Assembly (NCBI GenBank): GCA_017522065.1
Contig: JAFXAD010000017.1
Coordinates: forward strand, 1 to 55,631
Length of the DNA: 55,631 nucleotides
Direction of reading: 5' to 3'
From: Bacteroidales bacterium
GTDB taxonomy: Bacteria > Bacteroidota > Bacteroidia > Bacteroidales > P3
In this document: piece after piece, positions 1-55,631 of the stretch
Position numbering within the stretch: the stretch's first letter is position 1
Layout: each line of letters starts with the position of its first letter
Translations under genes and position numbers: made by a program
The notes under the pieces: generated by a model
What the model was told of the DNA's origin: nothing
Seen by the model: only the letters and a program-made list of their open reading frames with translations
Database searches by the model: none

Positions 1-98
1 CCCTTCACTCCCCCTTCACTCCCCCTTCACTCCTCCCTCACTCCCCCTATAACCCTCCAACCCTATAACCCTCCAACCCTATAACCCTTAACCTCAGA
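1..98 (+). repeat. CACTCCC array followed by CCCTATAA-type array, upstream of mutL
   Basis: The window opens inside a low-complexity array. About five copies of a CCCTTCACTCC-like word (1-48) are followed by about three copies of CCCTATAACCCTCCAA (47-89), and the array runs to within ten bases of the mutL GTG codon. The word order, CACTCCC before CCCTATAA before the start codon, is the same as in the other composite arrays of this window. The C-rich strand is the coding strand of mutL. No Shine-Dalgarno sequence is visible. Confidence 0.9.
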
Positions 99-1946
99 GT
101 GGATATTATCAACATACTTCCTGACAGTGTCGCCAACCAGATAGCGGCTGGCGAGGTGGTGGACCGCCCTGCATCGGCTGTCAAAGAACTGCTCGAAAAC
201 GCTATCGATGCCGGCGCAACGGAAATACAACTCATTGTCAAAGACGCCGGAAGAACATTGATACAAGTCGTCGACAACGGTTGCGGCATGTCGGACAGCG
301 ACGCCAGACTCTGTTTCGAGCGGCATGCAACATCAAAAATAAGCCGCGCCGACGACCTCTTCTCGATCCGCACCATGGGTTTCCGAGGCGAGGCGCTCCC
401 CTCGATTGCCGCCGTGTCGCAAGTCGAGATGCGGACCCGTCAACACGACAATCAGCTGGGCACCCTTGTCGTCATCGAGGGATCGGCCGTCAAGGAACAG
501 TCGCCATGCAGCTGTTCACCAGGAACATCGATATCGGTCAAGAACCTCTTCTACAACATCCCCGCTCGACGCAATTTCCTTAAACGCGACAGCATCGAAC
601 TGTCACATATCGAAGAAGTGTTCCGAAGGGTTGCATTGGCAAACTGGAATGTGGCATTCTCGTTCCATCACAACGGACGCCTACTATACGACCTCCGCGC
701 CGGAAATCTGGCCCAACGTATTGCCGGCATTTTCGGAAACGGATATAACCAGCGGCTTTACAGTATCGAAGAGAATACAGAACCCGTCAAGGTTTTCGGA
801 TATGTCGGCAAAGCCGAATACGTCAAACGCACACGAGGCGAACAATATATATTTGTCAACCAGCGGTTCATAAAACATCCCGGTCTGTCGGCCGCCATCG
901 AACGGGCCTACGCCGAATTGGTGCCGGAACACACCTATCCCGCTTACTTTGTCATGCTTACTGTCGACCCGTCGCGACTGGACGTTAATATCCATCCTAC
1001 AAAAACGGAAGTCCGCTTCATCGACGAAAGCGTGATTTTCGCAATCCTTAGGGCGGCAACAAAAAAAGCCTTGGGGCAGTTTTCGCTTGCCAACGAGCTT
1101 GAATTCAACCCATCGACCGAGATTGATTTCTCACCAGCCCCCAAAGGTCATGTCCCCGCGGCACCAGAAGTATCCTACAATCCCACCTACAACCCTTTCC
1201 GCGCTGAACAATCACACGACGAGAAGGCGAGACCGGACAAATTCGCATCTTTTTTTGACGATGCTCAAGGTGGCAATAGCGGTAGTATGCCTGCCGAGCA
1301 TGATGAGCCAGGTATTCCCCGCGAGTTTGGCGAAAGAATGGACGACGTCAGTACGTCAACCGAAAATCGTAGTGCCGACGAGCGCAACGCATTATCCGTA
1401 CTGAGTTTCCAAAACAGATACATCCTCGCAACACTCAAGTCGGGCGTTGTCGTCATCGACCGCCAACGAGCCCTCGAACGCATACTGTACGAGCGCTTTG
1501 CATCACGCAATCATAGCGCCAACCCGCAACAGCTCCTTTTCCCCGTAAACGTCCATCTCGGCTCTGCCGACAGCGAACTGCTCACCGAACTGATGCCCGA
1601 TATGAAGGATGCCGGATTCGTGCTTTCCCCGCTCGGACAGAACACCTTCGTCGTCTCAGCAGCTCCGCCAGACGTCGACGACATCTCCATTCAGCATATC
1701 ATCGAACAAATAATCAGCGATTACAAAAACAGCATGTTGCAGAAAATAAACGACAGGGCTGGTAGCATTGTCTTGACCATGGCACGACAACTGGCGTCAA
1801 AAGACTCCTCTCCTCTACGGCCAGAAGAGATGCAGCAACTCATGGCAGACCTCTTCAGTTGCCACACCCCCGATCTATCGCCATCAGGAAAACGCACCAT
1901 GTTCGTTCTCTCGGAACAAGAGCTCAAAGAAAAATTCAACAATTAA
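99..1946 (+). CDS. mutL: DNA mismatch repair protein MutL
   Basis: MutL is the GHKL-ATPase matchmaker of methyl-independent mismatch repair, linking MutS mismatch recognition to downstream excision. The 615-residue product carries the ATPase motifs in order: ENAIDAGAT (about residues 33-41), DNGCGM (59-64), RHATSKI (75-81) and GFRGEAL (94-100). A variable linker and a C-terminal dimerisation domain follow. The start is a GTG at 99, chosen because MutL proteins begin only a few residues before the LPDSVANQIAAGEVV motif. At the place where endonuclease-active MutL has DQHAxxExxxxE this protein has DRQRALERILYE (about 453-464), so the metal-binding motif is degenerate. Both flanks of the gene are repeat arrays. 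The gene is certain; loss of nuclease activity is inference. Confidence 0.97.
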   Translation: MDIINILPDSVANQIAAGEVVDRPASAVKELLENAIDAGATEIQLIVKDAGRTLIQVVDNGCGMSDSDARLCFERHATSKISRADDLFSIRTMGFRGEALPSIAAVSQVEMRTRQHDNQLGTLVVIEGSAVKEQSPCSCSPGTSISVKNLFYNIPARRNFLKRDSIELSHIEEVFRRVALANWNVAFSFHHNGRLLYDLRAGNLAQRIAGIFGNGYNQRLYSIEENTEPVKVFGYVGKAEYVKRTRGEQYIFVNQRFIKHPGLSAAIERAYAELVPEHTYPAYFVMLTVDPSRLDVNIHPTKTEVRFIDESVIFAILRAATKKALGQFSLANELEFNPSTEIDFSPAPKGHVPAAPEVSYNPTYNPFRAEQSHDEKARPDKFASFFDDAQGGNSGSMPAEHDEPGIPREFGERMDDVSTSTENRSADERNALSVLSFQNRYILATLKSGVVVIDRQRALERILYERFASRNHSANPQQLLFPVNVHLGSADSELLTELMPDMKDAGFVLSPLGQNTFVVSAAPPDVDDISIQHIIEQIISDYKNSMLQKINDRAGSIVLTMARQLASKDSSPLRPEEMQQLMADLFSCHTPDLSPSGKRTMFVLSEQELKEKFNN

Positions 1947-1952
1947 AAAAAA

Positions 1953-2116
1953 TTTAACTTTAAAATTTAACTTTAACCTTAACCTTAACTTTAACTTCAG
2001 ATACAGATCTATTGTCCCCTTCACTCCCCTTTCACTCCTCCCTCACTCCTCCCTCACTCCACCCTCACTCCCCCTAAAACCCTAAAACCCTTTAACCCCT
2101 ATAACCCTCCCCCTAA
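1953..2116 (+). repeat. Composite repeat: TTAACC array, CTATTGTCCC linker, CACTCCC array, CCCTAAAA array
   Basis: This is the cleanest example of the composite repeat. Reading with transcription: TTTAAC/TTAACC words (about 1953-1994), the anchor and linker CTTCAGATACAGATCTATTG plus TCCCC (1995-2019), five CACTCCC-type words (about 2020-2074), then CCCTAAAA/CCCTATAA words up to the ATG of the next gene. The region spans the whole mutL-rhomboid gap. No separate promoter or ribosome binding site can be distinguished in it. Confidence 0.9.
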
Positions 2117-2932
2117 ATGTCACAAAACTATTCTCCTCAAGGATTCCGCATGCTGCCAACCGGCGTAAAGCATCTTCTCATTCTTAATGCACTCTTCTAC
2201 ATCGCCGCCTTGGTTTTCCGCAGCTCCATGGGCATCGATCTCGACCGTTGGCTGGCACTCTACTATATCGGCAGCGACAGCTTCCGTCCGTGGCAGTACC
2301 TGACCTACATGTTCATGCATGGCAGTTTCGAACACATATTTTTCAACATGTTCGCCCTTTGGATGTTCGGATACATCCTCGAAAATTTCTGGGGAACACG
2401 ACGGTTCGTGATCTTCTATCTGCTCTGCGGCATTGGTGCCGGAGTGTTCCACACCCTCGTGACAGGCCTCATGGCAATGCCCGTACTGAACGACATCAAC
2501 ATTTACGCATCAAATCCATCGCCCGAAGCGCTCATCCAGATATACAACGACCATTTTGAAGGAATCATTAACCCTCAGTGGATTACAGAGGTTACCAACG
2601 CTTGGCGCAGTGGAATGCAAGGAGATTTCGCTCTCGACACCACATCGGCCCTCATGGAGGTGTACAACAAATCCGTCATCGGCATCCCCACTGTTGGCGC
2701 ATCGGGTGCCATCTATGGCATCCTGCTTGCATTCGGCATGATGTTTCCCGAGGAGCGTATCTATCTCTATTTTCTTGTTCCCATCAAAGCCAAATGGTTT
2801 GTAATTGGTTACGCTGTCGTCGAACTCGTTACCGGCATTATTGGCACCAACGACGGAATAGCCCATTTCGCTCACCTTGGCGGTATGCTCGTCGGCCTGA
2901 TTCTCATTCTCATGTGGCGCAGAAGGAGGTAA
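2117..2932 (+). CDS. Rhomboid family intramembrane serine protease
   Basis: A 271-residue polytopic membrane protein of the rhomboid family, which cleaves transmembrane substrates within the inner membrane. The GASGAIYG motif places the catalytic serine at residue 196, and AHLGG near the C-terminus supplies the histidine at 253. The conserved HGSFEHIFFNM loop-helix segment is at about 69-78. Between the third helix and the serine helix there is a hydrophilic insertion of about 70 residues (120-190), as I recall from other Bacteroidales rhomboids. The start ATG lies directly behind CCCTAA repeat words. The stop codon is 4 bases before the next start, and its last codons contain the AGGAGG used by rarD, so the two genes are probably co-transcribed. 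Substrate unknown. Confidence 0.93.
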   Translation: MSQNYSPQGFRMLPTGVKHLLILNALFYIAALVFRSSMGIDLDRWLALYYIGSDSFRPWQYLTYMFMHGSFEHIFFNMFALWMFGYILENFWGTRRFVIFYLLCGIGAGVFHTLVTGLMAMPVLNDINIYASNPSPEALIQIYNDHFEGIINPQWITEVTNAWRSGMQGDFALDTTSALMEVYNKSVIGIPTVGASGAIYGILLAFGMMFPEERIYLYFLVPIKAKWFVIGYAVVELVTGIIGTNDGIAHFAHLGGMLVGLILILMWRRRR

Positions 2933-2936
2933 AAGC

Positions 2937-3833
2937 GTGACCGACACTGCACAATACAGGAAAGGCTTGATATACGGGCTTCTGTGCTACTGCATCTGGG
3001 GCCTCTTCCCTCTCTATTGGCGACTGCTCGACCATGTCGGCAGTTTCGAGATCCTGGCACACCGGATGCTATGGTCCGCAGTCTTTATGATTGTTCTGTT
3101 TGTCGGCATAAGACACCGTAGCATCAAAAAAAGCATCCATACCTTTCGACAATGGATGGGGCTACTGCTCACCAGCGTGCTGATCAGTTTCAACTGGGGG
3201 TTGTACATCTGGGCCATAAACCATGGCTATATTCTGCAGAGCAGCATAGGGTATTATATTAACCCTCTTGTCAACGTATTGCTTGGATACCTCTTCCTCC
3301 ACGAACGTCTCAACCGGGCCCAATCGGTTGCCCTGCTCTTCGCTTTGGCGGGTGTGCTGTATTTCACCATTGACTATGGCCATTTCCCGATAATCTCCAT
3401 CGGCCTTGCACTGAGTTTCGGAATCTATGGCCTGCTCAAGAAGAAAATGGGTCTTCCGGCAACCGAAGCGCTGACTGTCGAGACTATATGGATGATGCCT
3501 GCCGCTGCTGCCTTTATTCTGTGGTCATATAACTCCGGCGACTCTGCTCTCAACTCATTCGATGCCCTAACGTGGATTCTCCTCTTGGCCGCGGGTGCCG
3601 TAACGGCCATTCCTTTACTACTTTATGGCAAGGCTGCAGAAAGAATAACATTGACCGATCTCGGATTCCTACAATACCTCTCACCTACAGGACAGTTCCT
3701 TATCGGGGTTTTTGTTTACGACGAGCCTTTCACGACAGCACATATAGTGTGTTTCGCGTGTATCTGGACCGGGCTGGCAATCTTTTCGGTCGATGCACTG
3801 AAGCCGAAAAAACTTGTCAAGAATGTACATTAG
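2937..3833 (+). CDS. rarD: EamA-family transporter RarD
   Basis: A 298-residue inner-membrane protein of the drug/metabolite transporter superfamily, RarD branch. It has about ten hydrophobic segments and the signature CYCIWGLFPLYWRLL at the N-terminus, typical of proteins annotated as chloramphenicol-sensitive RarD. The true substrate of the family is not established. Translation begins at a GTG (2937), supported by a strong Shine-Dalgarno AGGAGG at 2924-2929 inside the end of the rhomboid gene. Such a strong site is rare in this window and suggests translational coupling. The gene converges on the MATE transporter gene with about 40 bases between the two stop codons and no obvious terminator hairpin. 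Confidence 0.9.
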   Translation: MTDTAQYRKGLIYGLLCYCIWGLFPLYWRLLDHVGSFEILAHRMLWSAVFMIVLFVGIRHRSIKKSIHTFRQWMGLLLTSVLISFNWGLYIWAINHGYILQSSIGYYINPLVNVLLGYLFLHERLNRAQSVALLFALAGVLYFTIDYGHFPIISIGLALSFGIYGLLKKKMGLPATEALTVETIWMMPAAAAFILWSYNSGDSALNSFDALTWILLLAAGAVTAIPLLLYGKAAERITLTDLGFLQYLSPTGQFLIGVFVYDEPFTTAHIVCFACIWTGLAIFSVDALKPKKLVKNVH

Positions 3834-3873
3834 ACCTCCACAACCACTTCTGTCAGTCACGCAATCTTTTTCG

Positions 3874-6502: not shown

Positions 6503-6760
6503 AGCAAAAAAAAGTTAAAGTTAAGGTTAAGGTTAAGGTTATAAGGTTATAGGGTTTTAAGGTTAAAGGGTTATAGGGTTATAGGGGGAGTGAAGGTGGA
6601 GTGAAAGGGGAGTGAGAAGGGAGTGAAAGGGGAGTGAAAGGGACAATAGTTTTGTATCTAAAAGTTAAAGTTAAGGTTAAGGTTAAAGTTTTTTTCGTTT
6701 TCGTCTTCGTTTTCGTTAAAGTTAAAGTTAAAGTTAAAGTTAAGGTTAAAGTTAACGTTG

Positions 6761-6856
6761 TTAGTTATATTTATTAGAGTAATTAGCATGTAATTATATC
6801 CTGCGTAGCCTTCGCGTAATTCGAGTAATTCGCCGTTTAAAATAAGGTTAACGTTG
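6761..6856 (+). repeat. 96-bp interspersed element, copy A
   Basis: One of three copies identical over 96 bp (with 6915-7010 and 22933-23028). It begins TTAGTTATATTTATTAGAG and ends ATAAGGTTAACGTTG. Inside are the words GAGTAATT and TAATTCG, repeated, and a central CTGCGTAGCCTTCGCG. It has no open frame of note. Confidence 0.93.
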
Positions 6857-6914
6857 ATGAATTGTATCTGAAGTTAAGGTTAAAGTTAAAGTTAAGGTTA
6901 ACGTTGATGGAATC

Positions 6915-7010
6915 TTAGTTATATTTATTAGAGTAATTAGCATGTAATTATATCCTGCGTAGCCTTCGCGTAATTCGAGTAATTCGCCGTTTAAAATAAG
7001 GTTAACGTTG
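6915..7010 (+). repeat. 96-bp interspersed element, copy B
   Basis: Identical in all 96 positions to copy A, 154 bases away, and to the copy at 22933. Its left flank (TTAACGTTGATGGAATC) is shared with the 22933 copy, so the duplicated unit is somewhat longer than 96 bp there. Confidence 0.93.
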
Positions 7011-7054
7011 AAAGGTAATTGTATCTGAAGTTAAAGTTAAGGTTAAGGTTAACG

Positions 7055-8188
7055 TTAAAGAAACTTGTTGAATACAGGATTGGCATAGATTGCGAGAAAG
7101 AAATCCATGATTTTTTCCCTTGCGGCCAGCGACGGACCCTTTAGCGAGCTGTGTTCGGCGTACGACATGAAATCCTCCAACTGCTGCGTCGTATAGTTGT
7201 CGACATATTGGGCATCACCCGTCACAAGGTCGGCAGCAATGTAGTTTGTCTTATGCAGCTTGTAACCTTGATGTATACGATTGTCGATTATGTCGGCAAG
7301 TGCCGTATAACGTTCGTTCTTGAACAAAGCAGCGCACGAAGCCACCTCTTCTGCTGTGATAGGCTTGCAAAAATGAAGATGCACATCGCCCTTTTGTTGC
7401 GATATGCCCATCATGATGCTGACAACGTCCTCATGCTGAGTCTTTTCATATATACCCGTCGATGATGTGTATTCGGCAACGCTTTTCATCAAGTCACAAG
7501 GCTCGTATTCGTAGCTGATGGCTACGGGTACAATATTGAGTTTGTTGAAGTCTGCCTCAAAGTCGCCCGTACCCGCCATCGAGAACATCTTCAGCAACCC
7601 CTGGTCCGTACGGTCGTCTCCGTTTTTCGTTCGGCCGTTCCGCTGGGCAATCCATACCGAGCTCCCCTTTTCGAAAAGGACATGATGTATATAGTTCGAC
7701 AGGAAAACAGAGTTGTTGTAGAATTCCCGGCGCGACCCGTCCCGGATTATCGTGAACATCTTGTTGAGACGGAAAAGGTCGATCATGAAGTCATTCTTCA
7801 TCAGGTTGTTGCCAAATCCGATTTCCGGAGTCTTTATGCCGTTGGCAATCATTGCCACATCCAGCAGGCCGGCATCGAGCGTGATATCGCGATGGTTCGA
7901 AACAAACAGGTAGCACTTGTCGGCCGATATGTTCTCCAGCCCGTCGTATGTGAACGACGACATGCTCCGCTGCACAATCTGATAGACCAGCGGACGCATC
8001 ACCATATACTGCAGCTCGTCGCACGTCGTGATGCACTCCATCAACGCTGCAAAAGCATCGGCATCGACATTCGGATTCATCGTTTTCACCAGTCGGCTGA
8101 ACATAGGGTTATGTGCCAGGCGCGCTATCGCCGATGGCACCTCCGCCGACGTGTAGGGCTCTATACTTGAGAAATCAAATTCTGTCAC
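7055..8188 (-). CDS. Glycerol acyltransferase-like protein (PlsC/PlsB-type acyltransferase domain)
   Basis: A 377-residue protein with an acyltransferase core. NHRDITLD (about residues 98-105) corresponds to the first acyltransferase block; the histidine and last aspartate are five residues apart rather than the classical HX4D, a form I recall from Bacteroidales glycerol acyltransferases (NHRDIVLD). The EKGSSVWIAQRNGRTKNGDDRT segment resembles the substrate-binding block. The likely role is acyl transfer to a glycerol phosphate or related lipid at the inner face of the membrane. The ATG is close behind a composite repeat, and the TAA stop touches the TTAACC array downstream. Exact acceptor unknown. 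Confidence 0.82.
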   Translation of the reverse strand: MTEFDFSSIEPYTSAEVPSAIARLAHNPMFSRLVKTMNPNVDADAFAALMECITTCDELQYMVMRPLVYQIVQRSMSSFTYDGLENISADKCYLFVSNHRDITLDAGLLDVAMIANGIKTPEIGFGNNLMKNDFMIDLFRLNKMFTIIRDGSRREFYNNSVFLSNYIHHVLFEKGSSVWIAQRNGRTKNGDDRTDQGLLKMFSMAGTGDFEADFNKLNIVPVAISYEYEPCDLMKSVAEYTSSTGIYEKTQHEDVVSIMMGISQQKGDVHLHFCKPITAEEVASCAALFKNERYTALADIIDNRIHQGYKLHKTNYIAADLVTGDAQYVDNYTTQQLEDFMSYAEHSSLKGPSLAAREKIMDFFLAIYANPVFNKFL

Positions 8189-8191
8189 AAT

Positions 8192-8413
8192 ATTTAAGGT
8201 TAAGGTTATAGGGTTATAGGGTTATAGGTTTTAAGGTTATAGGGGGAGTGAGGGTGGAGTGAAAGGGACAATAGTTTTGTATCTATTTGTATCTAAAAGT
8301 TAAGGTTAAGGTTAAAGGTTAAAGTTAAAGGGTTATAGGGTTATAGGGTTATAGGGTTAAAGGGTGAAGAGTTGTTTTCGTTTTCGTCTTCGTTTTCGTG
8401 CCGAAGGCCTTTT
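8192..8413 (-). repeat. Composite repeat upstream of the acyltransferase gene
   Basis: Together with the heptamer run that follows, this occupies the 377-base gap between the acyltransferase and hexosaminidase genes. On the minus strand the order is ACGAAAACGAAG words joined to a GGCCTTCGGCACG junction, CCCTATAA words, TTAACC words, the linker with a doubled AGATACA (8265-8299), two CACTCCC words, CCCTATAA words and TTAACC words up to the start region of the acyltransferase. The order of linker, CACTCCC and CCCTATAA is the same as at 1995-2116 and 6503-6664. Confidence 0.9.
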
Positions 8414-8581
8414 CGTTCTCACTTCTCAGTTCTCAGTTCTCCGTTCTCACTTCTCAGTTCTCAGTTCTCACTTCTCAGTTCTCACTTCTCAGTTCTCAGT
8501 TCTCACTTCTCCGTTCTCACTTCTCACTTCTCCGTTCTCACTTCTCCGTTCTCACTTCTCAGTTCTCAGTTCTCAGTTCTC
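8414..8581 (-). repeat. Uninterrupted run of 24 heptamers nnTTCTC
   Basis: Exactly 24 consecutive 7-base units fill 168 bp. Each is TTCTC preceded by one of only three dinucleotides: ag, ac or cg. The core pentamer never varies, while the dinucleotide does, like a minisatellite variant-repeat code. On the minus strand the run reads GAGAACT/GAGAAGT/GAGAACG and contains the stop codon of the hexosaminidase gene. Translated frames through it give serine/phenylalanine-rich peptides that are artefacts. Confidence 0.95.
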
Positions 8582-10624: not shown

Positions 10625-10694
10625 GGGTTGAAGGATTGAAGGGTTGAAGATATTAAGGGGGTTTTCGTTTTCGTTTTCGTCTTCGTTTTCGTAT
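10625..10694 (-). repeat. GGGTTGAA words and ACGAAAACGAAG words after the pseudouridine synthase gene
   Basis: On the plus strand three GGGTTGAA-like words (10625-10648) are followed by six TTTTCG/TCTTCG words (10661-10693). The latter end exactly at the TGA stop codon (10695-10697) of the minus-strand gene, so this word type begins immediately after the coding region. Confidence 0.85.
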
Positions 10695-14671: not shown

Positions 14672-15315
<644 letters not shown>

Positions 15316-22889: not shown

Positions 22890-23069
22890 AATTGTATCTG
22901 AAGTTAAGGTTAAGGTTAACGTTGATGGAATCTTAGTTATATTTATTAGAGTAATTAGCATGTAATTATATCCTGCGTAGCCTTCGCGTAATTCGAGTAA
23001 TTCGCCGTTTAAAATAAGGTTAACGTTGATGAATTGTATCTGAAGTTAAGGTTAAGGTTAAGGTTAAGG
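22890..23069 (-). repeat. Repeat filling the rsmD-purC gap, including 96-bp element copy C (22933-23028)
   Basis: On the minus strand: TTAACC words starting inside the last rsmD codons, an anchor TTAACTTCAGATACA, the 96-bp element (identical to 6761-6856 and 6915-7010), further TTAACC words and a second anchor. AACGTTAACC, which carries the rsmD stop codon, is the same word that flanks the 96-bp elements. Confidence 0.92.
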
Positions 23070-23618
23070 TTAACGTTGATGAATATTTTTTGCGAAGAAA
23101 GTGAAGTTAACTTTTCCATACGCCCTATGCTGCCAAAAATGAGGGTTGTCTTCGAACGAGAATTCTTTCGGATGTTCAAGAATGAAAATGCCGTCGTCTT
23201 CAAGCACGTCACTGTCGAAAACCAATTGTGGCAATACGGGCAGATCATTGAGCGCATAAGGAGGATCGGCAAAAACTATGTCAAATTTCCTGTTTGCACG
23301 CTTCAACAAGTCAAAGACATCGGCCCTTACCACACGCATATTCCCTATCTTCATTTGCTGCACGGTGCTTTTCATGAATTCGGTACATGCGTTGTTGATA
23401 TCCACACTCGTAACCTCCTTGGCACCGCGCGACACAAACTCGACGCTCACAGCCCCCGTACCGGCAAAAAGATCCATTACCGAACATTCGTCATAATCGA
23501 CGTAGTTGTTCAATATATTGAAAAGACTTTCCCTTGCCATATCGGTGGTAGGTCTGACAGGAAGCGACGTCGGCGGATTCAATTTCCGTCCTCTGAATGT
23601 GCCTGCAATTATACGCAT
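23070..23618 (-). CDS. rsmD: 16S rRNA (guanine(966)-N2)-methyltransferase
   Basis: A 182-residue SAM-dependent methyltransferase that methylates G966 of 16S rRNA. Visible motifs are MRIIAGTFRGRKL, the SAM-binding MDLFAGTGAVSVEFVSRGA (about 49-67) and the catalytic FADPPY (about 116-121). The C-terminal residues IHQR and the stop codon are encoded by the repeat word AACGTTAACC rather than by a conserved RsmD tail. It sits downstream of DUF3822, an arrangement I recall as usual in Bacteroidales. Confidence 0.95.
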   Translation of the reverse strand: MRIIAGTFRGRKLNPPTSLPVRPTTDMARESLFNILNNYVDYDECSVMDLFAGTGAVSVEFVSRGAKEVTSVDINNACTEFMKSTVQQMKIGNMRVVRADVFDLLKRANRKFDIVFADPPYALNDLPVLPQLVFDSDVLEDDGIFILEHPKEFSFEDNPHFWQHRAYGKVNFTFFAKNIHQR

Positions 23619-23643
23619 AGGATTACGGTTGATGAAATAGGTA

Positions 23644-23682
23644 ATTGTATCTGAAGTTAAGGTTAAGGTTAAGGTTAAAGTA
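23644..23682 (-). repeat. Short TTAACC array with anchor between DUF3822 and rsmD
   Basis: Four TTAACC-type words followed by the anchor TTAACTTCAGATACA (minus strand). The array begins at the DUF3822 stop codon (23675) and ends about 25 bases from the rsmD ATG. Confidence 0.85.
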
Positions 23683-24499
23683 TTAAAGCATATCTATACA
23701 GCCCTACGTGCTGCATCTCTGTATCGGACAGCTTTTTGTCACGTCCGCCATAGAGCGACACCTTGGGGAAGTAAGGTCTCATTTTGGAATAACCATCCCT
23801 ATCAATGTTTCCGCACAATGCAACCTCCATAGCCGCATCCTCAAGGTGCAGCTGCTTTGTTATGTTCAAAGCATGGTATAGCGTTTCCTCTGTGCAGCTG
23901 CATTTGAATGTATTGCTAAGCTGAAGTTTCTTGTTGCAGAATATTGCGAAATCGCTTTCCCCATCCCGGATATTGACAAGCATCACCGAGCGCATGTCGC
24001 TATATGATAATATTTTGTCATTAACCATCGCAGCATGTTGGCAAGTGACTTTCAGCCCTGGAATGGCAATTTTGAACGCCGAAGCCTGATTGTTGTTGGC
24101 GCTGAACACGATATAAGATTTTATCGCTTCATTGTAATTACAGAATACACCATTCCCCTCATGCACCTTGCAGAGCGCTTCGAGATACTCCGTTTTCTTT
24201 GTTTCATCAAAAAGGTGCTCAGGAATCCATACCATTTGGTCCGTAGGTATAATCAGTCGGACATCTTTGAGCCCGAAAGTTTGAATCTTTATCTCCGCAA
24301 AAATGTTTTTGATGTCTGATATCAATTCAGCTATCGGAGAATTGATATTGCATTCCACTTCTCCAATGGCAAGGAGTTCGTCATGTGTGCTGCACACCGA
24401 AAAAGAAAATCCATTTGACTCGATGCAAATGGACAATCTTTTTTCAAATGAGGCAACATCTTTGTCTGATCCGATAAACGACTTAATTATATGCGACAT
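23675..24499 (-). CDS. DUF3822 family protein
   Basis: A 274-residue protein of a family restricted, as far as I recall, to Bacteroidota and usually placed next to rsmD. The fold is related to actin/hexokinase-like type IV pilus ATPase (PilM-like) proteins by annotation, but function is unknown. Visible features are an N-terminal SFEKRLSICIESNGFSFSV, a central RLIIPTDQMVWIPEHLFD and a C-terminal ALCGNIDRDGYSKMRPYF. I chose the ATG at 24499 (MSHIIKSFIG). The reading frame stays open to 24646 only because it runs through the repeat element upstream; that extension is an artefact. Confidence 0.8.
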   Translation of the reverse strand: MSHIIKSFIGSDKDVASFEKRLSICIESNGFSFSVCSTHDELLAIGEVECNINSPIAELISDIKNIFAEIKIQTFGLKDVRLIIPTDQMVWIPEHLFDETKKTEYLEALCKVHEGNGVFCNYNEAIKSYIVFSANNNQASAFKIAIPGLKVTCQHAAMVNDKILSYSDMRSVMLVNIRDGESDFAIFCNKKLQLSNTFKCSCTEETLYHALNITKQLHLEDAAMEVALCGNIDRDGYSKMRPYFPKVSLYGGRDKKLSDTEMQHVGLYRYALIL

Positions 24500-24514
24500 A
24501 GATGTTATTGATTT

Positions 24515-24586
24515 ATTTATTAGAGTAATTAGCATGTAATTATATCCTGCGTAGCCTTCGCGTAATTCGAGTAATTCGCCGTTTAA
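24515..24586 (+). repeat. 96-bp element, partial copy D (72 bp)
   Basis: ATTTATTAGAGTAATTAGC through CGCCGTTTAA matches the internal 72 bp of the three full copies. Both ends are missing, including the TTAACC-type flank. It lies in the leader of the DUF3822 gene. Confidence 0.9.
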
Positions 24587-24616
24587 GTAATACTTTTGTA
24601 GTATTTTGCAATAAAT

Positions 24617-24655
24617 ACAAATGGTATGTAGGCATATAACCCACATACCATTTGT
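24617..24655 (-). terminator. Terminator hairpin after the gene at 24668
   Basis: A perfect 13-bp stem (ACAAATGGTATGT with its complement at 24643-24655) encloses a 13-base loop that can add a short inner stem. It starts 13 bases past the stop codon. The downstream T content on the minus strand is modest (ATTTATT), so termination is likely but not textbook. Confidence 0.7.
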
Positions 24656-24667
24656 GCATTTGGTTAA

Positions 24668-25393
24668 TTATTCGAAATTACCTTCGGTAACAGGAGCGGT
24701 GATGTCGCCGACTTTCCAGCCCAAGAACTTGTTCATGTCTTTAAGTTCGGCTTTCTTGTTTATAAGCCATTGCTCATCGCTTCCAGTGAAAATCTCAACA
24801 AATTTATGGAATGCACCATCGTTTGAATCATTTGTGTAATCGGCAAACAGGTCGTCGAGGGTTACAAAAGCCTCAAAGGTAGGAAGTTTTCCGCCAGCGC
24901 CAGAGAGCGATGCAGCGACGGAGTCCGCCTTGATGGTGAATTTGGTTTGCTTGTGGGTATAAGGAACATAGATTACATCGGCCAACTGCTCGTCGGTCAA
25001 TGTAAGTTTTTTATCTTCGCGTAGTTTTTCCAGAGGCACAACATAAACCTCTTTCTGGACGATCCAGCCTTTACGGATAGCCTCAAGTTCAGGCATGTCG
25101 TAAACAGAATCCGGTGCATTTTCGGCCTTCTCCTTGCGCATCACCTTCTGCTCTTGCTTGCTCAGATTGAGAAGCAATGTGTCGAAGTTGCCGCAATAGG
25201 TACCGTAAGCAGCCTTGTGGGCCTCTTCCAATGTGCGAATCACTTTCAGTTTTTCGCCACAGGCATCGCGACGTGTGTAGTATTCAGACTCGCGCTGCTG
25301 AGGACGATTGATACAGAGGAAAATCATAACGCCCAAGAACACAATCAGTAGTCCAAGGACACTCTTCAGGATAATAGATCCAGTCTTGCTCAT
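24668..25393 (-). CDS. Unknown membrane-anchored protein
   Basis: A 241-residue protein with one N-terminal membrane segment (about 8-30, ILKSVLGLLIVFLGVMIFL) and a long extracytoplasmic part. After the helix come a charged stretch RESEYYTRRDACGEKLKVIR and LEEAHKAAYGTYCGNFDTLL, with two cysteines that could pair. The helix followed by a helical segment with AYGTYCGNFDTL recalls pseudopilin-like organisation, but this is not enough to assign a function. It has its own -7 box upstream and its own terminator, so it is a single-gene unit. Confidence 0.7.
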   Translation of the reverse strand: MSKTGSIILKSVLGLLIVFLGVMIFLCINRPQQRESEYYTRRDACGEKLKVIRTLEEAHKAAYGTYCGNFDTLLLNLSKQEQKVMRKEKAENAPDSVYDMPELEAIRKGWIVQKEVYVVPLEKLREDKKLTLTDEQLADVIYVPYTHKQTKFTIKADSVAASLSGAGGKLPTFEAFVTLDDLFADYTNDSNDGAFHKFVEIFTGSDEQWLINKKAELKDMNKFLGWKVGDITAPVTEGNFE

Positions 25394-31746: not shown

Positions 31747-31948
31747 TCTGAAGTTAAAGTTAAGGTTAAGGTTAAAGGGTTAAAGGGTTTTAGGGTTATA
31801 GGGTTATAGGGTTTTAAGGTTAACGTTGATGAATTGTATCTGAAGTTAAGGTTAAGGTTAAAGTTAAGGTTATTTTTCGTTTTCGTTTTCGTGCGAAGCT
31901 CTGTATCTAAAGTTAAGGTTAAGGTTAAGGTTAAGGTTAAGGTTTTTT
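31747..31948 (-). repeat. Composite repeat between DUF5715 and ychF genes
   Basis: On the minus strand: TTAACC words beginning at the DUF5715 stop codon, an anchor TTAGATACA with the GAGCTTCGCACG junction, ACGAAAACGAAA words, TTAACC words, another anchor followed by TTCATCAACGTTAACC (the flank of the 96-bp element without the element), CCCTATAA words, and TTAACC words ending in CTTCAGA at the ychF ATG. It contains no CACTCCC part. Confidence 0.9.
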
Positions 31949-31949
31949 T

Positions 31950-35102: not shown

Positions 35103-35120
35103 CTATTTTTTTTTGTTTTG

Positions 35121-35151
35121 CAAAGTTACAAAAATTAGGCGGATTGGCAAA
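35121..35151 (-). promoter_or_regulatory. Bacteroidota promoter TTTG-N19-TAACTTTG
   Basis: On the minus strand a -33 TTTG (35148-35151) is separated by exactly 19 bases from TAACTTTG (35121-35128). This matches the TTTG / TAnnTTTG consensus of the primary Bacteroidota sigma factor and is the best promoter in the window. It drives the DUF4199-GT2-gmhB-DUF5715 operon. Confidence 0.85.
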
Positions 35152-35158
35152 CTTTTTG

Positions 35159-35166
35159 TATCTTTG
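35159..35166 (+). promoter_or_regulatory. Promoter -7 box TATCTTTG for the divergent lipoprotein gene
   Basis: TATCTTTG matches TAnnTTTG on the plus strand, 66 bases before the ATG at 35232. The -33 region is poor (TTAG). It overlaps the upstream region of the divergent minus-strand promoter. Confidence 0.65.
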
Positions 35167-35231
35167 CAAAAATTTTCAGCAGTAAAATTAATTTATTCAA
35201 TAAAATAATCTATTAACAAAAACTTACAGAA

Positions 35232-38372: not shown

Positions 38373-38408
38373 ACGAAAACGAAGACGATAACGATAACGA
38401 AAACAAAA
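38373..38408 (+). repeat. Short ACGAAAACGAAGACGATAACG array upstream of der
   Basis: Five or six ACGAAAACGA-like words on the plus strand, the same word type that on the minus strand follows the genes at 10695 and 14848. Here too the orientation matches the direction of the flanking genes. The array ends about 35 bases before the der ATG. Confidence 0.85.
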
Positions 38409-47180: not shown

Positions 47181-47184
47181 AATG

Positions 47185-47192
47185 CAAAATTA
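47185..47192 (-). promoter_or_regulatory. Promoter -7 box TAATTTTG immediately before dnaB
   Basis: TAATTTTG on the minus strand ends 4 bases before the dnaB ATG (47180), which would place transcription start at or near the start codon. Confidence 0.55.
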
Positions 47193-47320
47193 CTCGTTTT
47201 TTTTGAAAGAATGATTTTTATTACAATTTTTTTTCAAATATGGCGTTATGTCGTTATCGTGATTGAAGGTTGAGCAAAAGATAACCATTTGAACTTATAA
47301 TAAAGGATTATATATTTAAA

Positions 47321-48510: not shown

Positions 48511-48538
48511 CCTTGCCAAACAATTCAAACCTATTGCT

Positions 48539-50632: not shown

Positions 50633-50649
50633 CTAAGGCAACACCTGAA

Positions 50650-50910
50650 AAATCGTTTAATTCGCAATTTGTTTACAAAATAAACTCTTCAATATTAATT
50701 CGTTAAATTCGAATAATTCGCCGTTTTAAAAAAAAATCGTTTAATTCGCCGTTAACTTCAGATTCAGATCTATTGTCCCCCTCACTCCCCTTTCACTCCC
50801 CTCTCACTCCCCTCTCACTCCCCTCTCACTCCCCTCTCACTCCACAATTTAATTAATGTCAACATATTAATTCGTTAAATTCGTATAATTCGCCGTTTTA
50901 AAAAAAAACT
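50650..50910 (+). repeat. AATTCG-word repeats with linker and CACTCCC array after recG
   Basis: First part of the 482-base gap between recG and the TPR gene. It holds several AATTCGCCGTT words (related to the end of the 96-bp element), the anchor and linker CTTCAGATTCAGATCTATTG plus TCCCC (50756-50780), about six CACTCCCCT words (50781-50844), and a second copy of the block ATTAATTCGTTAAATTCG...CGCCGTTTTAAAAA. I see no gene or terminator. Confidence 0.9.
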
Positions 50911-50930
50911 TCGTTTTCGACAAGGGAAAC

Positions 50931-51112
50931 CATCAAACCCTAAACCCTACAACCCTACAACCCTACAACCCTCAAACCCTCAAACCCTCAAACCCATCAA
51001 ACCCTCCAACCCTCCAACCCTACAACCCTCAAACCCTCAAACCCTCAAACCCATCAAACCCTCCAACCCTCCAACCCTCCAACCCACAAACCCTCCAACC
51101 CTCAAACCCTCA
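50931..51112 (+). repeat. Telomere-like CCCTACAA/CCCTCAAA/CCCTCCAA array upstream of the TPR gene
   Basis: About 22 words of 8-9 bases, all of the form CCC plus T or A plus A/C-rich spacer, run without interruption to the ATG at 51115. Within it a 57-bp higher-order unit of seven words is present twice in perfect tandem (50964-51020 and 51021-51077). The template strand has GGG tracts every 5-6 bases and so fits G-quadruplex patterns. Confidence 0.95.
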
Positions 51113-51114
51113 AT

Positions 51115-52269: not shown

Positions 52270-52301
52270 CGGACCGCTGCAAGCAAATCCCTCTTTTTTT
52301 T
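52261..52301 (+). terminator. Probable terminator overlapping the stop codon of the TPR gene
   Basis: GCTTG/CAAGC (52261-52265, 52280-52284) and AGCG/CGCT form a two-part stem containing the TAG stop codon, followed nine bases later by eight T (52294-52301). The gap before the T-run is longer than usual. Confidence 0.55.
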
Positions 52302-52354
52302 GATTTCTGATTGTTCTTTTTGATATTTTTATATAAAAATCTTGATTAATGTCG

Positions 52355-52362
52355 TATCTTTG
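52355..52362 (+). promoter_or_regulatory. Promoter -7 box TATCTTTG for the nrnA operon
   Basis: TATCTTTG fits TAnnTTTG and lies 24 bases before the nrnA ATG. The -33 element is weak. Confidence 0.7.
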
Positions 52363-52385
52363 CAGTTTGTAAAACGAGCTGTAAA

Positions 52386-53420
52386 ATGCCATTAAATTTT
52401 GACAATGAACTTATTGAACGCTTTGCCAAACACCTTGACAAGGCGCGGAAAATCGCAATCGTTTCGCACATGAACCCCGATGGCGACGCTGTCGGTTCTT
52501 TGCTTGGGTGCTATCATTGGCTTTGCTCGTCATTCTATGCCGGTGAATCTTGCCCGGACATAACCATGCTTTTGCCGCATCCTGCTCCAGCCGACTCCAG
52601 CTATCTCCCTTCGTCCGAACTAATCATCGACGCTGAGAACAACTTGCAGCTATGCGAACGGCATCTCTCTGAGGCCGACCTCATTATCGGCGTGGACTTC
52701 AACAACAGCCGACGTATCATGCCTCTCGACAAAGCCCTCGAAGCATGTCAAGCCCCCAAGATGCTGGTCGACCATCACCACAACCCTGACACCGAATTGT
52801 TCCAAACGGTGCTTTCCGTCCCTGACCTTTCGTCTACGTGCGAACTGCTCTATTGGCTCTTTGTCAGGATTATTGGCGATAGCTCCATCAACACCGACAC
52901 CGCCCGATGCCTCTTTCACGGAATCAACACCGACACTGGCTGTTTCGCTTATGCCAACGAAGACCCGTCGCTTTACGAGGCTGCTGCTGCACTGATGAAA
53001 CACCCCATCAACGCTGCTCAAGTTCACAACCGCACATTCAACAACTACAGCATCAGGAAAATGCAGATTCTCGGATTCCTCATATCGCAACGTATGAAGA
53101 TTTTCAGCGACCAAGGATTCTGCTACATCTATATCAGCGCCGACGACCTGGCCCAGTTCAACGGCAAAGCCGAAGATCTCGAAGGACTCGTGAACTATAC
53201 TCTTATGATTCAAACCATGAAGGTCGGCGCTATGGTCAAAGAAACCGATGGGAAAGTACGTCTCTCGTTCCGCTCTAAAGACGATTTCGACGTCAACGCA
53301 TTCGCCAAGCAATACTTTGGAGGCGGCGGCCACACAAAGGCCAGCGGCGCCACTTCGCCCTACGATTTCGACACGACACTGAAAATCTTGGAAGAAAACA
53401 TGTTAAAAGAACTGTCTTAA
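52386..53420 (+). CDS. nrnA: DHH family phosphoesterase, NrnA-like (nanoRNase / pAp phosphatase)
   Basis: A 344-residue DHH-DHHA1 phosphoesterase that degrades short oligoribonucleotides and 3',5'-pAp or cyclic dinucleotide products. Motifs: HMNPDGDAVGS (I), GVDFNNSRR (II), VDHHHNPD (III, the DHH) and HGINTDTGCFAY (IV), with GGGGHTKASGA in the C-terminal DHHA1 domain. It heads an operon with two FKBP lipoproteins; I recall a similar order (DHH, GldI) in Flavobacteriia. Confidence 0.93.
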   Translation: MPLNFDNELIERFAKHLDKARKIAIVSHMNPDGDAVGSLLGCYHWLCSSFYAGESCPDITMLLPHPAPADSSYLPSSELIIDAENNLQLCERHLSEADLIIGVDFNNSRRIMPLDKALEACQAPKMLVDHHHNPDTELFQTVLSVPDLSSTCELLYWLFVRIIGDSSINTDTARCLFHGINTDTGCFAYANEDPSLYEAAAALMKHPINAAQVHNRTFNNYSIRKMQILGFLISQRMKIFSDQGFCYIYISADDLAQFNGKAEDLEGLVNYTLMIQTMKVGAMVKETDGKVRLSFRSKDDFDVNAFAKQYFGGGGHTKASGATSPYDFDTTLKILEENMLKELS

Positions 53421-53431
53421 ATCACCCTACC

Positions 53432-53938
53432 TTGAAAAAAACTTTTCTCATATTGGCTTTTGGACTGCTCACGGCATGTCATAACGACCCTCCTATCGTG
53501 GGACCGGTGAACACGCAGAACAACAGTCTCAAGGAGCACATGATCAATGCCAACAGGACTATAGCACAATCCGAAGAGACTGCCATTGACGAATACATTA
53601 GCCGGTACGGATGGACTATGACCAAATTGCCCGAAGGTGCCAGAGTGTGGGAATACGAAAAAGGTAGCGGCAAACCTATCGGCTTCGAAGACAGCGTATC
53701 GATTCGTTACAATGTCGAAGCCATCAACGGCAAAACACTTTATACCAATGTTGAAGAACACTTTGTCGCAGGTCGCAAACGCGACATGATTGGACTCGAC
53801 CAAGCGGTGCGCAGCTTGCGCTACGGCAGCAGAGCCAAAATCATTCTGCCTTCCAACCTCGCCTATGGCGTCGGTGGCGATGGCGACCGAATACCTCAAA
53901 GCGCTATTCTCGTAATCGACCTTACTATCGACAACTGA
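53432..53938 (+). CDS. FKBP-type peptidyl-prolyl isomerase lipoprotein, GldI-like
   Basis: A 168-residue lipoprotein (signal ending FGLLTAC) with one FKBP domain in the C-terminal half (about 78-167: GFEDSVSIRYN... then SLRYGSRAKIILPSNLAYG). These lipoproteins assist folding of envelope or secreted proteins; GldI is needed for gliding in Flavobacterium. The start codon is TTG at 53432, 12 bases after nrnA; no ATG fits. Confidence 0.82.
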   Translation: MKKTFLILAFGLLTACHNDPPIVGPVNTQNNSLKEHMINANRTIAQSEETAIDEYISRYGWTMTKLPEGARVWEYEKGSGKPIGFEDSVSIRYNVEAINGKTLYTNVEEHFVAGRKRDMIGLDQAVRSLRYGSRAKIILPSNLAYGVGGDGDRIPQSAILVIDLTIDN

Positions 53939-53982
53939 ATAATAATAAACAATTTAAACAAAATCAATAATATCAAAAAAAA

Positions 53983-54879
53983 ATGAAAAAGTTTTTCAGA
54001 TTATTTGCTGCACTCACTCTCTGCGCGTCGTTTTTGACGAGCTGCGGCGACGGTTTCAAGACCACTCCTAACGGTCTTAAGTATAAATTTTTAGAGACAA
54101 ACAAAGATGCACAACAAGTCCAGATGAATGATGTGCTCGTCGGTACCTGCACGCTGAAACTCAACGACTCGGTCCTCCGTAGCGTCACCACTCCCGACCG
54201 CATCCTTATGGCCAGCGAAAACCTCTTCAAAGGCGACCTCCCCGAAGGTCTGCTTATGATGCACATCGGCGACAAAGCCATCTTCGTTGTCGAGGCCGAC
54301 TCCGTGGCTGCTCTCGGTATGCAACTCCCGCCTTTCTACAAAGCCGGCACCGGTATGAAACTCTACTATGAAATCCACCTCACCGACATCATTACTCAAG
54401 AGGAAATGAACGAGGAACGCAAAAACTACATGGAGAACATGGAACAAATGCACGAAGCCGAGAAAGAAACTCTTGCTCAGTATGTCTCCGAAAAAGGCAT
54501 CAAAGCCTCTCCCGACGACGACGGCCTGTACATCGCTGTCAACAAGAAGGGCAATGGCCCCAAAGTCGAAATCGGACGCAATGTCGCCATCAACTACACC
54601 GGACGCCTCCTCGACGGCAGAGTGTTCGACACCAGCATCGAAAGCGTTGCCAAGGAAAACAACATCTACGACAGCAACCGCCCCTACGAACCTCTCTCCT
54701 ACCGCGTCGGCGAAATGTCCCTGATCCGCGGCTGGGAAAAAGGCGTCATCAACCAGCCTGCCGGCAGCAAGCTGACTCTCGTCATCCCCTCGGCTCTCGC
54801 CTATGGCCCCCAAGACCTCGGCATCATCCCGCCAAACAGCCCTCTTGTATTCGATATCGAAATTGTTTCTGTAAAATAA
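53983..54879 (+). CDS. FKBP-type peptidyl-prolyl isomerase lipoprotein with two FKBP-like domains
   Basis: A 298-residue lipoprotein (signal ending ASFLTSC). An N-terminal FKBP-like region (about 25-135, with LPEGLLMMHIGDKAIFVV) is joined by a charged helix rich in M, E and N (about 140-170) to a canonical C-terminal FKBP domain (about 195-297, RNVAINYTGRLLDGRVFDTS, ending LVFDIEIVSVK). The first domain looks degenerate and may serve for substrate binding. It is 44 bases downstream of the GldI-like gene, in the same operon. Confidence 0.88.
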   Translation: MKKFFRLFAALTLCASFLTSCGDGFKTTPNGLKYKFLETNKDAQQVQMNDVLVGTCTLKLNDSVLRSVTTPDRILMASENLFKGDLPEGLLMMHIGDKAIFVVEADSVAALGMQLPPFYKAGTGMKLYYEIHLTDIITQEEMNEERKNYMENMEQMHEAEKETLAQYVSEKGIKASPDDDGLYIAVNKKGNGPKVEIGRNVAINYTGRLLDGRVFDTSIESVAKENNIYDSNRPYEPLSYRVGEMSLIRGWEKGVINQPAGSKLTLVIPSALAYGPQDLGIIPPNSPLVFDIEIVSVK

Positions 54880-54880
54880 C

Positions 54881-54924
54881 TCAAACCCTCCAACCCTCAA
54901 ACCTTCAAACCCTCCAACCCTCAA
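54881..54924 (+). repeat. CCCTCAAA/CCCTCCAA array upstream of adk
   Basis: Five CCC(T)-A/C-rich words fill the whole gap between the FKBP gene and the adk ATG (54928). Same word family and orientation as at 50931-51112. Confidence 0.9.
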
Positions 54925-54927
54925 ATC

Positions 54928-55494
54928 ATGCTTAACATAATCCTTTTCGGCGCTCCGGGTGCAGGCAAAGGAACCCAGAGTGACCTGCTCGTCGAGAAAT
55001 ACAATCTCAACCACATTTCCACCGGCGACCTGCTGCGCAAAGAAATTGCAGACCAGACCGAACTCGGAAAACGCATCAAAAACATCATGGACTCCGGCAG
55101 TCTCGTGAGCGACGACATCGTAGTCGAAATGATCGACAATGCCATTGCCAAAGATACACAAGGCATCCTGTTCGACGGCTTCCCGCGCAACGTCGCTCAG
55201 GCCGAAACCCTCGAGAAACTCCTCGCAAAACATGGACGCAAACTCACCTGTATGGTCAGCCTCGACGTCCCTCGCGAAGAACTCATCCGACGCATGCTCG
55301 AACGTGCCAAGGTCTCCGGACGTAGCGACGACAACGAGGAGACTATCAAAAACCGCCTCAAAGAATACGAGGCCAAAACTCTCCCCGTCGCCTCTTACTA
55401 CGAAAGCAAGGGTCTCCATGTCAAAGTCAACGGTTTCGGCGACATCCACGACATCTCCAATGCCATCATCGCCGCTATCGAAAAACGCAAATAA
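54928..55494 (+). CDS. adk: Adenylate kinase
   Basis: A 188-residue short-form adenylate kinase interconverting ATP + AMP and 2 ADP. The P-loop is FGAPGAGKGTQ (about 7-17), STGDLLRKEI forms part of the AMP site, FDGFPRN is the conserved central motif, and the LID is short without a zinc site, as usual for the 189-residue Bacteroidota form. The leader consists entirely of telomere-like repeat words. Confidence 0.97.
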   Translation: MLNIILFGAPGAGKGTQSDLLVEKYNLNHISTGDLLRKEIADQTELGKRIKNIMDSGSLVSDDIVVEMIDNAIAKDTQGILFDGFPRNVAQAETLEKLLAKHGRKLTCMVSLDVPREELIRRMLERAKVSGRSDDNEETIKNRLKEYEAKTLPVASYYESKGLHVKVNGFGDIHDISNAIIAAIEKRK

Positions 55495-55512
55495 ACTCAT
55501 TTGCAACTCTCT

Positions 55513-55544
55513 CGGTGGCACGGATCTGACCGTCTGTACCACCG
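55513..55544 (+). other. Hairpin downstream of adk
   Basis: CGGTGG pairs with CCACCG and, inside, ACGG with CCGT around a 6-base loop. It starts about 20 bases after adk. No T-run follows, so it is not a standard terminator; the next CCCTCCAA-type array starts shortly after it. Confidence 0.4.
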
Positions 55545-55561
55545 CCAATACGAAAAGTAAC

Positions 55562-55631
55562 ATAACCCTCCAACCCATCAACCCCATCAAACCCATCATC
55601 CCCATCAAACCCATCAAACCCTAAAACCCTA
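55562..55631 (+). repeat. CCCATCAA/CCCTAAAA array at the window end
   Basis: About eight words of the form CCC plus ATCAA, CATCAA or TAAAA, continuing beyond the window. By analogy with the other arrays it should lie immediately upstream of a plus-strand gene outside the window. Confidence 0.85.

What the first reader, a model, noticed from the sequence alone, without database searches (positions are those of the whole stretch)
1..55631. Orientation-locked composite repeats fill gaps between co-directional genes
Thirteen or so gaps carry low-complexity words: 1-98, 1953-2116, 6510-7053, 8192-8581, 10625-10694, 14672-14847, 22890-23069, 23644-23682, 31747-31948, 38373-38408, 50650-51112, 54881-54924, 55562-55631. 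In the C-rich word classes the C-rich strand is always the coding strand of the neighbouring genes, whether those are on + (mutL, rhomboid, TPR, adk) or - (M20, acyltransferase, rsmD, purC, ychF). None occurs in the divergent gaps (35103-35231, 47181-47320) or the convergent gaps. Word order is preserved in independent gaps: TTAACC, anchor, CTATTGTCCC linker, CACTCCC, CCCTATAA, start codon. Random slippage would not give a shared order and a transcription-linked orientation. A family of leader/trailer elements that spread by gene conversion or copying, and may act in RNA, is a possible explanation. I recall low-complexity intergenic words in some Bacteroidales, but not this grammar being described.
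Basis: partly seen in the sequence, partly recalled or inferred. Interest (0 to 1): 0.82.

Follow-up and report, generated by a model that had tools for sequence, protein, structure and literature searches.

The report
Composite word-array repeats between genes

Summary
The repeats are real and at the stated places. In the window the C-rich words lie in coding sense and outside the convergent and divergent gaps. In 40 held-out stretches of the same genome the strand lock fails for most words (TTAACY 15 gaps sense: 8 antisense, core 5:5). It stays for AACCC runs (18:2), CCC runs (18:3), CCCTATAA (12:2) and, weaker, CGAAAACG (18:6). In relatives the same core lies mostly antisense (4:16). What holds is the internal order: (TTAACY)n, CTTCAGATAC, about 7 bases, TTGTCCC, C-rich words. 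The core recurs at 22 own sites and, as a looser pattern, in 14 of 120 genomes of the genus, this one included, with no hit of the reversed control. Relatives have the same joints short or filled with other words. The word after the core is species-specific. Some relatives carry the core at the tip of a large hairpin with inverted word arrays. Best reading: a clade-specific family of dispersed composite repeats, copied into gene joints, whose word arms are homogenised within a species. A function in RNA is not shown. It is a new variant of known intergenic short-repeat families.

The parts
1..98 (+). CACTCC array then CCCTATAA/AACCC array, up to the mutL start
   Evidence: window base 1 is base 1 of contig C13, so the contig begins inside the composite
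1947..2116 (+). full composite mutL-rhomboid: TTAACY 1967-1996, core 1999-2018, CACTCC 2022-2071, AACCC 2078-2106
   Evidence: the same joint carries the core in relative G045
6503..7054 (-). composite between 7055-8188 and M20: 154-base unit in 2.2 copies, TTAACY arrays, CGAAAA, core 6640-6659, CACTCC, AACCC
   Evidence: joint of 12 bases, overlapping, and about 75 bases in G035, G033, G005
8189..8581 (-). GAGAACT heptamer array (8414-8581, runs into the end of the GH20 gene), CGAAAA, AACCC, TTAACY, core 8265-8284, CACTCC, AACCC
10662..10694 (-). CGAAAA array directly after the stop of the pseudouridine synthase gene
14672..14847 (-). CGAAAA and TTAACY arrays with anchor CTTCAGATAC
22890..23081 (-). 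TTAACY arrays, anchors and one copy of the AATTACTCG unit (rsmD-purC)
23639..23678 (-). TTAACY array and anchor (DUF3822-rsmD), beginning in the stop codon
24514..24586 (-).
31747..31949 (-). TTAACY arrays with anchors, CGAAAA, AACCC array (DUF5715-ychF)
38373..38408 (+). CGAAAA array in front of der
50715..51113 (+). AATTCGCCGTT copies, variant core 50760-50779, CACTCC array, 187-base AACCC array up to the TPR gene start
54880..54925 (+). AACCC array filling the FKBP-adk gap
55564..55629 (+). AACCC array after adk, at the window end

Best explanation
These gaps hold members of a clade-specific family of dispersed composite repeats. Shown: members share one axis, (TTAACY)n - CTTCAGATACA - short spacer - TATTGTCCC - C-rich word array - often an AACCC array; they sit mostly in joints between co-directional genes, in either orientation; the joints compared are short in many relatives; the C-rich word next to the core is species-specific; some relatives carry the same core at the tip of a large hairpin whose arms are inverted word arrays, once inside the mutL reading frame. 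Inferred: the hairpin is the older form and the TTAACY form is a half-hairpin whose left arm was replaced (no joint with both forms was found); members spread by copying between joints (recombination on shared words, with slippage lengthening the arms), which also makes the words uniform within a genome; co-directional joints tolerate them because little but a stop and a start codon has to be kept, and some words supply the stop codon. The remaining strand lock (AACCC and CCC runs on the coding strand, close to start codons, in this genome) is read as selection against G-runs in the mRNA there, not as a property of the element.
For: Core at 22 own sites, 21 of them with exactly 7 spacer bases; within 60 bases TTAAC lies left of the core at 15 of 22 sites and right at 3, CACTYC right at 20 and left at 5, whatever the orientation to genes. 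Looser pattern in 14 of 120 genomes of the genus, reversed control 0 in all 120; 21 rows here, 12, 8, 8, 4 in G064, G045, G052, G035, one each in nine; in the rest of the family 1 of 70, control 1. The own-type core has one match in the collection of 84,980 species, inside a gene, about 4 expected by chance by my estimate (the own genome and near ones may be left out there). Word after the core: own 19 of 21 rows CACT-type, relatives 38 of 41 AACT-type (four pairs of relatives' rows overlap). Short joints: GH20-acyl and acyl-M20 in three closest relatives; DUF3822-rsmD 6-47 bases and rsmD-purC 8-158 in 19 relatives against 60 and 215 here, from the last aligned residue; mutL-rhomboid 9-372 in 13 loci of 12 genomes. 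Same joint, same core, both flanks matched: this genome and G045 (mutL-rhomboid), G052 and G064; one flank matched: G052 and G045. Hairpin form: L183, L185, L186, L200 fold with z -8.1, -8.3, -4.6, -7.2. CCC x4 runs, held-out: 18 gaps sense, 3 antisense, 11 of the 18 within 50 bases of the next start.
Against: No copying event was seen directly; no strains of this species were compared. Joints are not always short in relatives: DUF5715-ychF is 41-504 bases in the 5 loci where both genes were found, 203 here, and G064, G097, G052 fill mutL-rhomboid with 152-160 bases of other sequence. A general measure of repeated 6-mers is not confined to co-directional gaps (own 118 of 348 co-directional, 13 of 48 convergent, 25 of 61 divergent), and for anchor or core the confinement in this genome is not significant. 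In G045 and G052 CCC runs show no lock (2:3, 2:5), and AACCC runs occur in 4 held-out convergent or divergent gaps. Harm by G-runs is assumed: one listed abstract says that an RNA G-quadruplex in the 5' UTR promotes translation, studied in vitro and in E. coli (PMC11087576, listing only).
Confidence: 0.5

Rival explanations
1. Orientation-locked RNA leader elements: the composite is transcribed in front of the next gene and acts in translation or Rho-dependent termination; the C-rich, G-poor stretch would be an unstructured loading site.
For: In the window the core copies found are sense; AACCC x3 runs end within 50 bases of a start codon in 14 of 18 held-out sense gaps; several TTAACY-armed composites are predicted nearly unstructured. 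MacGregor 2015 suggests a translational role for TAACTGA repeats in front of start codons (PMC4679880, abstract).
Against: Held-out cores 5:5, TTAACY 15:8; relatives' cores mostly antisense, G052 0:7; the element is missing from the same joints in many relatives.
Confidence: 0.17
2. Independent slippage of simple repeats in unconstrained gaps, without copying between sites.
For: Other species fill the same gaps with other words; neighbouring TTAACY units are slightly more alike than shuffled ones (0.61 against 0.52, p 0.0125, 23 arrays).
Against: A core that is not itself repeated at most sites, with fixed spacing, at 22 own sites and in other species; fixed word order; a long unit shared by separate gaps.
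Confidence: 0.12
3. A mobile element of the REP/BIME or MITE kind moved by a Y1 (RAYT-like) or other transposase.
For: Dispersed, mostly intergenic, hairpin forms; the genome has two Y1_Tnp matches.
Against: The flanks of both Y1_Tnp genes carry other repeated sequences and neither the core, TTAACY pairs nor GGCTGACGC; lengths of the composites vary with their arrays; no target duplication was noticed, but none was searched for systematically.
Confidence: 0.15
4. Assembly artefact of a metagenome bin.
For: Several contigs begin within about 120 bases of a core or inside a composite (C8, C17, C20, C54, and C13 itself); a run of N interrupts the G045 array.
Against: The same core and order in separately assembled genomes of other species, at least twice at a joint with both flanks matched.
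Confidence: 0.03

Closest known systems
G-rich heptamer repeats (GGGAATC, GGGGAYT) of Xanthomonas and Nostoc, Rehm et al. 2015 (PMC4692102; passages read)
   Same: Preferred between aligned genes, under-represented between divergent genes; G-rich strand on the non-coding side within 50 bases in front of an open reading frame.
   Different: There one heptamer; here several words of 6-11 bases in fixed order around a core, in hairpin and half-hairpin forms. There G-rich strands lie about equally on either strand and loci with repeats are more conserved than controls; here CCC runs are 18:3 on the coding strand and the joints compared are often empty in relatives.
TAACTGA direct repeats of Beggiatoaceae, cyanobacteria and some Bacteroidetes, MacGregor 2015 (PMC4679880; abstract and section 10 read)
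   Same: Intergenic short direct repeats, mostly forward and close to start codons in some genomes; mixed heptamers in some Bacteroidetes; shorter repeat-free gaps in some close relatives.
   Different: Different words; no conserved core in what I read.
REP/BIME palindromes with RAYT transposases (PMC2817692, search listing only)
   Same: Dispersed extragenic palindromes, composite arrangement.
   Different: Here arms are tandem words that differ between species; the Y1_Tnp genes found lie among other repeats.
Tandem repeats of Borg elements (PMC9879509; passages read)
   Same: Fast-evolving tandem arrays, some starting in the end of a reading frame.
   Different: Borg arrays have perfect units and arise independently; here units vary and order is shared between sites.

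Membership tests
Intergenic short tandem direct repeats (TAACTGA type) | Units of about 7 bases, head to tail, intergenic | tested here: met
   units of 6, 7, 8, 9 and 11 bases; TTAACYTTAAC 3 times in called genes against 134 in gaps of the sample
Intergenic short tandem direct repeats (TAACTGA type) | Unit TAACTGA | tested here: not met
   none of the array consensus units is TAACTGA
Intergenic short tandem direct repeats (TAACTGA type) | Forward orientation to the next start codon | tested here: inconclusive
   met for AACCC (18:2), not for TTAACY 15:8, CACTCC pairs 7:4, core 5:5
G4-forming heptamers (Rehm type) | Preferred between aligned genes, rare between divergent genes | tested here: inconclusive
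   TTAACY 20 of 236 against 1 of 94 (p 0.011); core or anchor 17 of 236 against 4 of 94 (p 0.46); convergent and divergent pooled
G4-forming heptamers (Rehm type) | G-rich strand opposite the coding strand within 50 bases of a start | tested here: met
   in this genome only: CCC x4 runs 18 sense: 3 antisense held-out gaps, 11 of 18 within 50 bases; not in G045 (2:3) or G052 (2:5); pattern only, no structure measured
REP/BIME with RAYT | RAYT gene flanked by the same palindrome | tested here: not met
   core, TTAACY pairs and GGCTGACGC absent from both Y1_Tnp loci held
MITE | Terminal inverted repeats with target duplication | not tested
   six joints were set beside relatives, without a systematic search for duplications
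Rfam RNA families | Match to a curated RNA family | tested here: not met
   0 matches in the window at gathering scores

The most novel reading that the evidence does not exclude
The genus carries a whole class of array-armed hairpins: a few tip cores (GACAAT...ATTTGTC/TATTGTCCC and GGCTGACGC) persist across species, while the words that build the arms are rewritten in each species and kept uniform within a genome, even inside an RNase P RNA and inside the mutL reading frame. Some process, perhaps enzyme-driven, writes or copies short words next to the cores at gene joints.
Probability: 0.2. Interest if true: 0.8.

Novelty: new variant of a known kind. Interest (0 to 1): 0.52.

Why it matters
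Here a clade lengthens operon joints by up to hundreds of bases with related, species-specific word arrays around a core that is conserved between species. Comparing close strains would show how such words are copied and made uniform, a question that seems open for short intergenic repeats in bacteria generally (my judgement from the papers seen).

Tried and rejected
Universal strand lock: rejected by held-out stretches and by relatives. A general C-over-G skew of arrays: rejected, own co-directional gaps with arrays 61 C-rich to 48 G-rich, relatives 31 to 44. Phage source: the own-type core has 0 matches in the viral collection; phage and plasmid records were not searched. Origin from a gene: the single outside match lies in a gene of a Bacteroides bin downstream of a rhomboid pair; the number is within chance, so I leave it as coincidence. 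Rfam: no match. RAYT link: not supported. Rho loading site: considered from general knowledge, not testable here. Name of the organism: not given by the tools; an uncultured Bacteroidales genus, possibly Cryptobacteroides, is my guess only. Print search for the words: 135 papers hold at least one of five words, none of the 15 listed holds two, and their subjects are unrelated; the literature searches listed no description of this composite (listings only, open-licence papers).

Limits: genes were called by my own script (starts revised), so starts may be off by codons. The own stretches were taken from contigs that had matches, and the G045 and G052 stretches largely from contigs with cores, which inflates densities but should not affect orientation. 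Loci exist for 26 of the 41 non-own rows.
Full report
What is there. The window is C13:1-55631 of a 2.62-Mb, 62-contig, 91% complete genome (the length of C13 was not shown). Tandem repeat search gives 32 rows, with units of 6, 7, 8, 9 and 11 bases and longer ones up to 154. Pfam names neighbours as mutL, rhomboid, M20 peptidase, GH20, PheT, purC, rsmD, ychF, der, TPR, FKBP and adk; the protein 7055-8188 has no Pfam match at E 1e-5, so 'acyltransferase' is not confirmed, and 'acyl' below is only a label.

Held-out test. I took 40 other stretches of the same genome and called genes with my own script: 457 gaps of 20 bases or more, 348 co-directional, 48 convergent, 61 divergent, window included. 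Pooled with the window the bias looks strong (TTAACY 22 gaps sense to 8 antisense). Without the window it is 15:8, anchor 11:6, CTATTGTCCC 5:3, CACTCC pairs 7:4, GAGAACT 7:2, AATTCGCCGTT 4:11, none significant; CCCTATAA 12:2, AACCC 8-mers 17:1 and CGAAAACG 18:6 remain. With an AACCC x3 pattern the count is 18:2, with CCC x4 18:3. Several exceptions are whole blocks inverted with their word order intact, for example L044 16762-17095 and L030 8954-9169. So the window is an unusually one-sided sample.

The core. AGATAC, 3 to 14 bases, TTGTCCC has 22 matches in the genome, the reversed control 4; 21 of 22 have exactly 7 bases between. TTAAC lies within 60 bases to the left at 15 of 22 sites and to the right at 3; CACTYC to the right at 20 and to the left at 5 (the four C54 copies in a row account for four of these five). 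In L120 the core touches the start codon. By my gene loci lie sense (three with one flank known) and 6 antisense, the C54 cluster counted once; the 15 loci with both flanks called are co-directional (L119 is not).

Relatives. A looser pattern with a C-rich word behind the core hits 14 of 120 genomes of the genus, this one included, and its reversed control none: 21 rows here, 12 in G064, 8 each in G045 and G052, 4 in G035, one each in nine others, of which the G006 one looks accidental. In the rest of the family 1 of 70 genomes has a hit, and 1 has a control hit. An own-type core occurs once in the collection of 84,980 named species, inside a gene, and not in the viral collection. The flanks show TTAACY and CTTCAGATACAAA in copies of G045, G052 and G064 too (one letter differs in some), but the word behind the core is AACTTCC or AACTCCC instead of CACTCCC (own 19 of 21 rows CACT-type; relatives 38 of 41 AACT-type). 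Of 25 distinct non-own loci, 4 lie sense and 16 antisense with both flanks called, 1 is convergent, 4 have one flank (three antisense, one sense). In stretches of G045 the core is 3:2, in G052 0:7.

Joints in relatives. GH20 and acyl are one base apart in G035, about 35 in G033 and about 100 in G005, 377 here; acyl and M20 are 12 bases apart in G035, overlap in G033 and are about 75 apart in G005, 552 here (read by eye). DUF3822-rsmD is 6-47 bases in 19 relatives, 60 here; rsmD-purC 8-158, 215 here, with other low-complexity words in some. mutL-rhomboid is 9-372 bases in 13 loci of 12 genomes; G045 carries a composite with other left-hand words there, and G064, G097 and G052 carry 152-160 bases of other sequence. 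DUF5715-ychF is 41-504 bases in the 5 loci where both genes were found, 203 here. Comparing flanking proteins, the core lies at the same joint with both flanks matched in this genome and G045 (65% and 83%) and in G052 and G064 (78% and 88%); G052 and G045 share the downstream neighbour of another copy (89%).

Hairpins. Copies in G070 (L183), G019 (L185), G098 (L186) and G035 (L200) fold into large hairpins whose arms are inverted word arrays (z -8.1, -8.3, -4.6, -7.2; 60 shuffles each); L180 (-3.6), L181 (own, -2.7), L190 (-2.5) and L118 (own, -2.3) are weaker; most other copies do not stand out. The G019 copy is not in a gap: it lies in frame inside mutL, between stretches that align to MutL. 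A second tip sequence, GGCTGACGC, lies next to arrays in this genome and in five relatives among the 40 sampled, with z -7.3, -6.9, -5.5 in L139, L160, L161, about -3 in L154, L020 (two), L025 and L046, and 0.1 in L146; two of six own non-coding calls (L024, L033) look like gene sequence. In L154 it lies within an RNase P RNA, in a stretch where the model leaves out 3 positions and the sequence 86; the own RNase P RNA was located but not inspected.

Stop codons. The GAGAACT array runs into the GH20 reading frame, which ends RTEN-stop with the stop taken from the array, while G035, G033 and G005 end in other residues. Words shared with the gap reach the last 21 bases of the upstream gene in 8 of 297 own co-directional gaps of 40 bases or more, against 1.4 in internal control; six of the eight look like arrays. 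At gene starts it is 5 against 0.6, none of them plainly an array. In the relatives' sample it is 3 of 274 against 0.0 at gene ends and 0 against 1.2 at starts.

Reading. The shared core, order and long unit speak for descent by copying; the species-specific words speak for homogenisation within a genome; the short joints speak for gain in this lineage, though some relatives have gains of their own. The strand lock is confined to AACCC and CCC runs (with a weaker bias of CGAAAACG) in this genome and resembles what Rehm et al. report for G-rich heptamers in front of reading frames (passages). The cause, selection on G-runs in mRNA, is inference, as is the descent of the TTAACY form from a hairpin. 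A function of the composite is not shown.

Known kinds. MacGregor 2015 and Rehm 2015 describe intergenic short repeats with partly similar placement. I saw no description of the composite or of array-armed hairpins in the listings of searches, which cover open-licence PubMed Central papers only; of three papers I read an abstract, a section or passages.

Noticed in passing
L139, L146, L154, L160, L161 and own L020, L025, L046: GGCTGACGC sits next to or between word arrays in several species, often with inverted arms; arms differ by species and site.
   Followed up: partly
L185 about 513-527: In relative G019 a hairpin copy of the core with its arrays lies in frame inside mutL, between aligned parts of MutL.
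   Followed up: partly
L154 17600-18034 (-): A (GGTTATA)n array with GGCTGACGC lies in a variable stretch of the RNase P RNA gene of relative G036.
   Followed up: partly
L206 and L207: The two Y1_Tnp genes of this genome lie among other repeated sequences (GCACCCCT 10 and CAGCCGTT 12 times in L206, GGATTTGYAATCC 8 matches counted over both strands in L207), perhaps a REP/RAYT arrangement separate from the composites.
   Followed up: no
window 24480-24700: Missed repeat copy; the listed DUF3822 start at 24646 is probably too far upstream, since relatives mostly align only from about residue 43-50.
   Followed up: partly
L132 2967-2986: The own-type core occurs exactly in a gene of a Bacteroides bin downstream of a rhomboid pair, and a rhomboid gene follows a core in the window; probably chance.
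   Followed up: partly
window 6719-7060, 22901-23081, 24514-24586: The unit with CGAATTACTCGAATTACGCGAAGGCTACGCAGG recurs; a similar hairpin-like unit is in relative G111 (L164).
   Followed up: no
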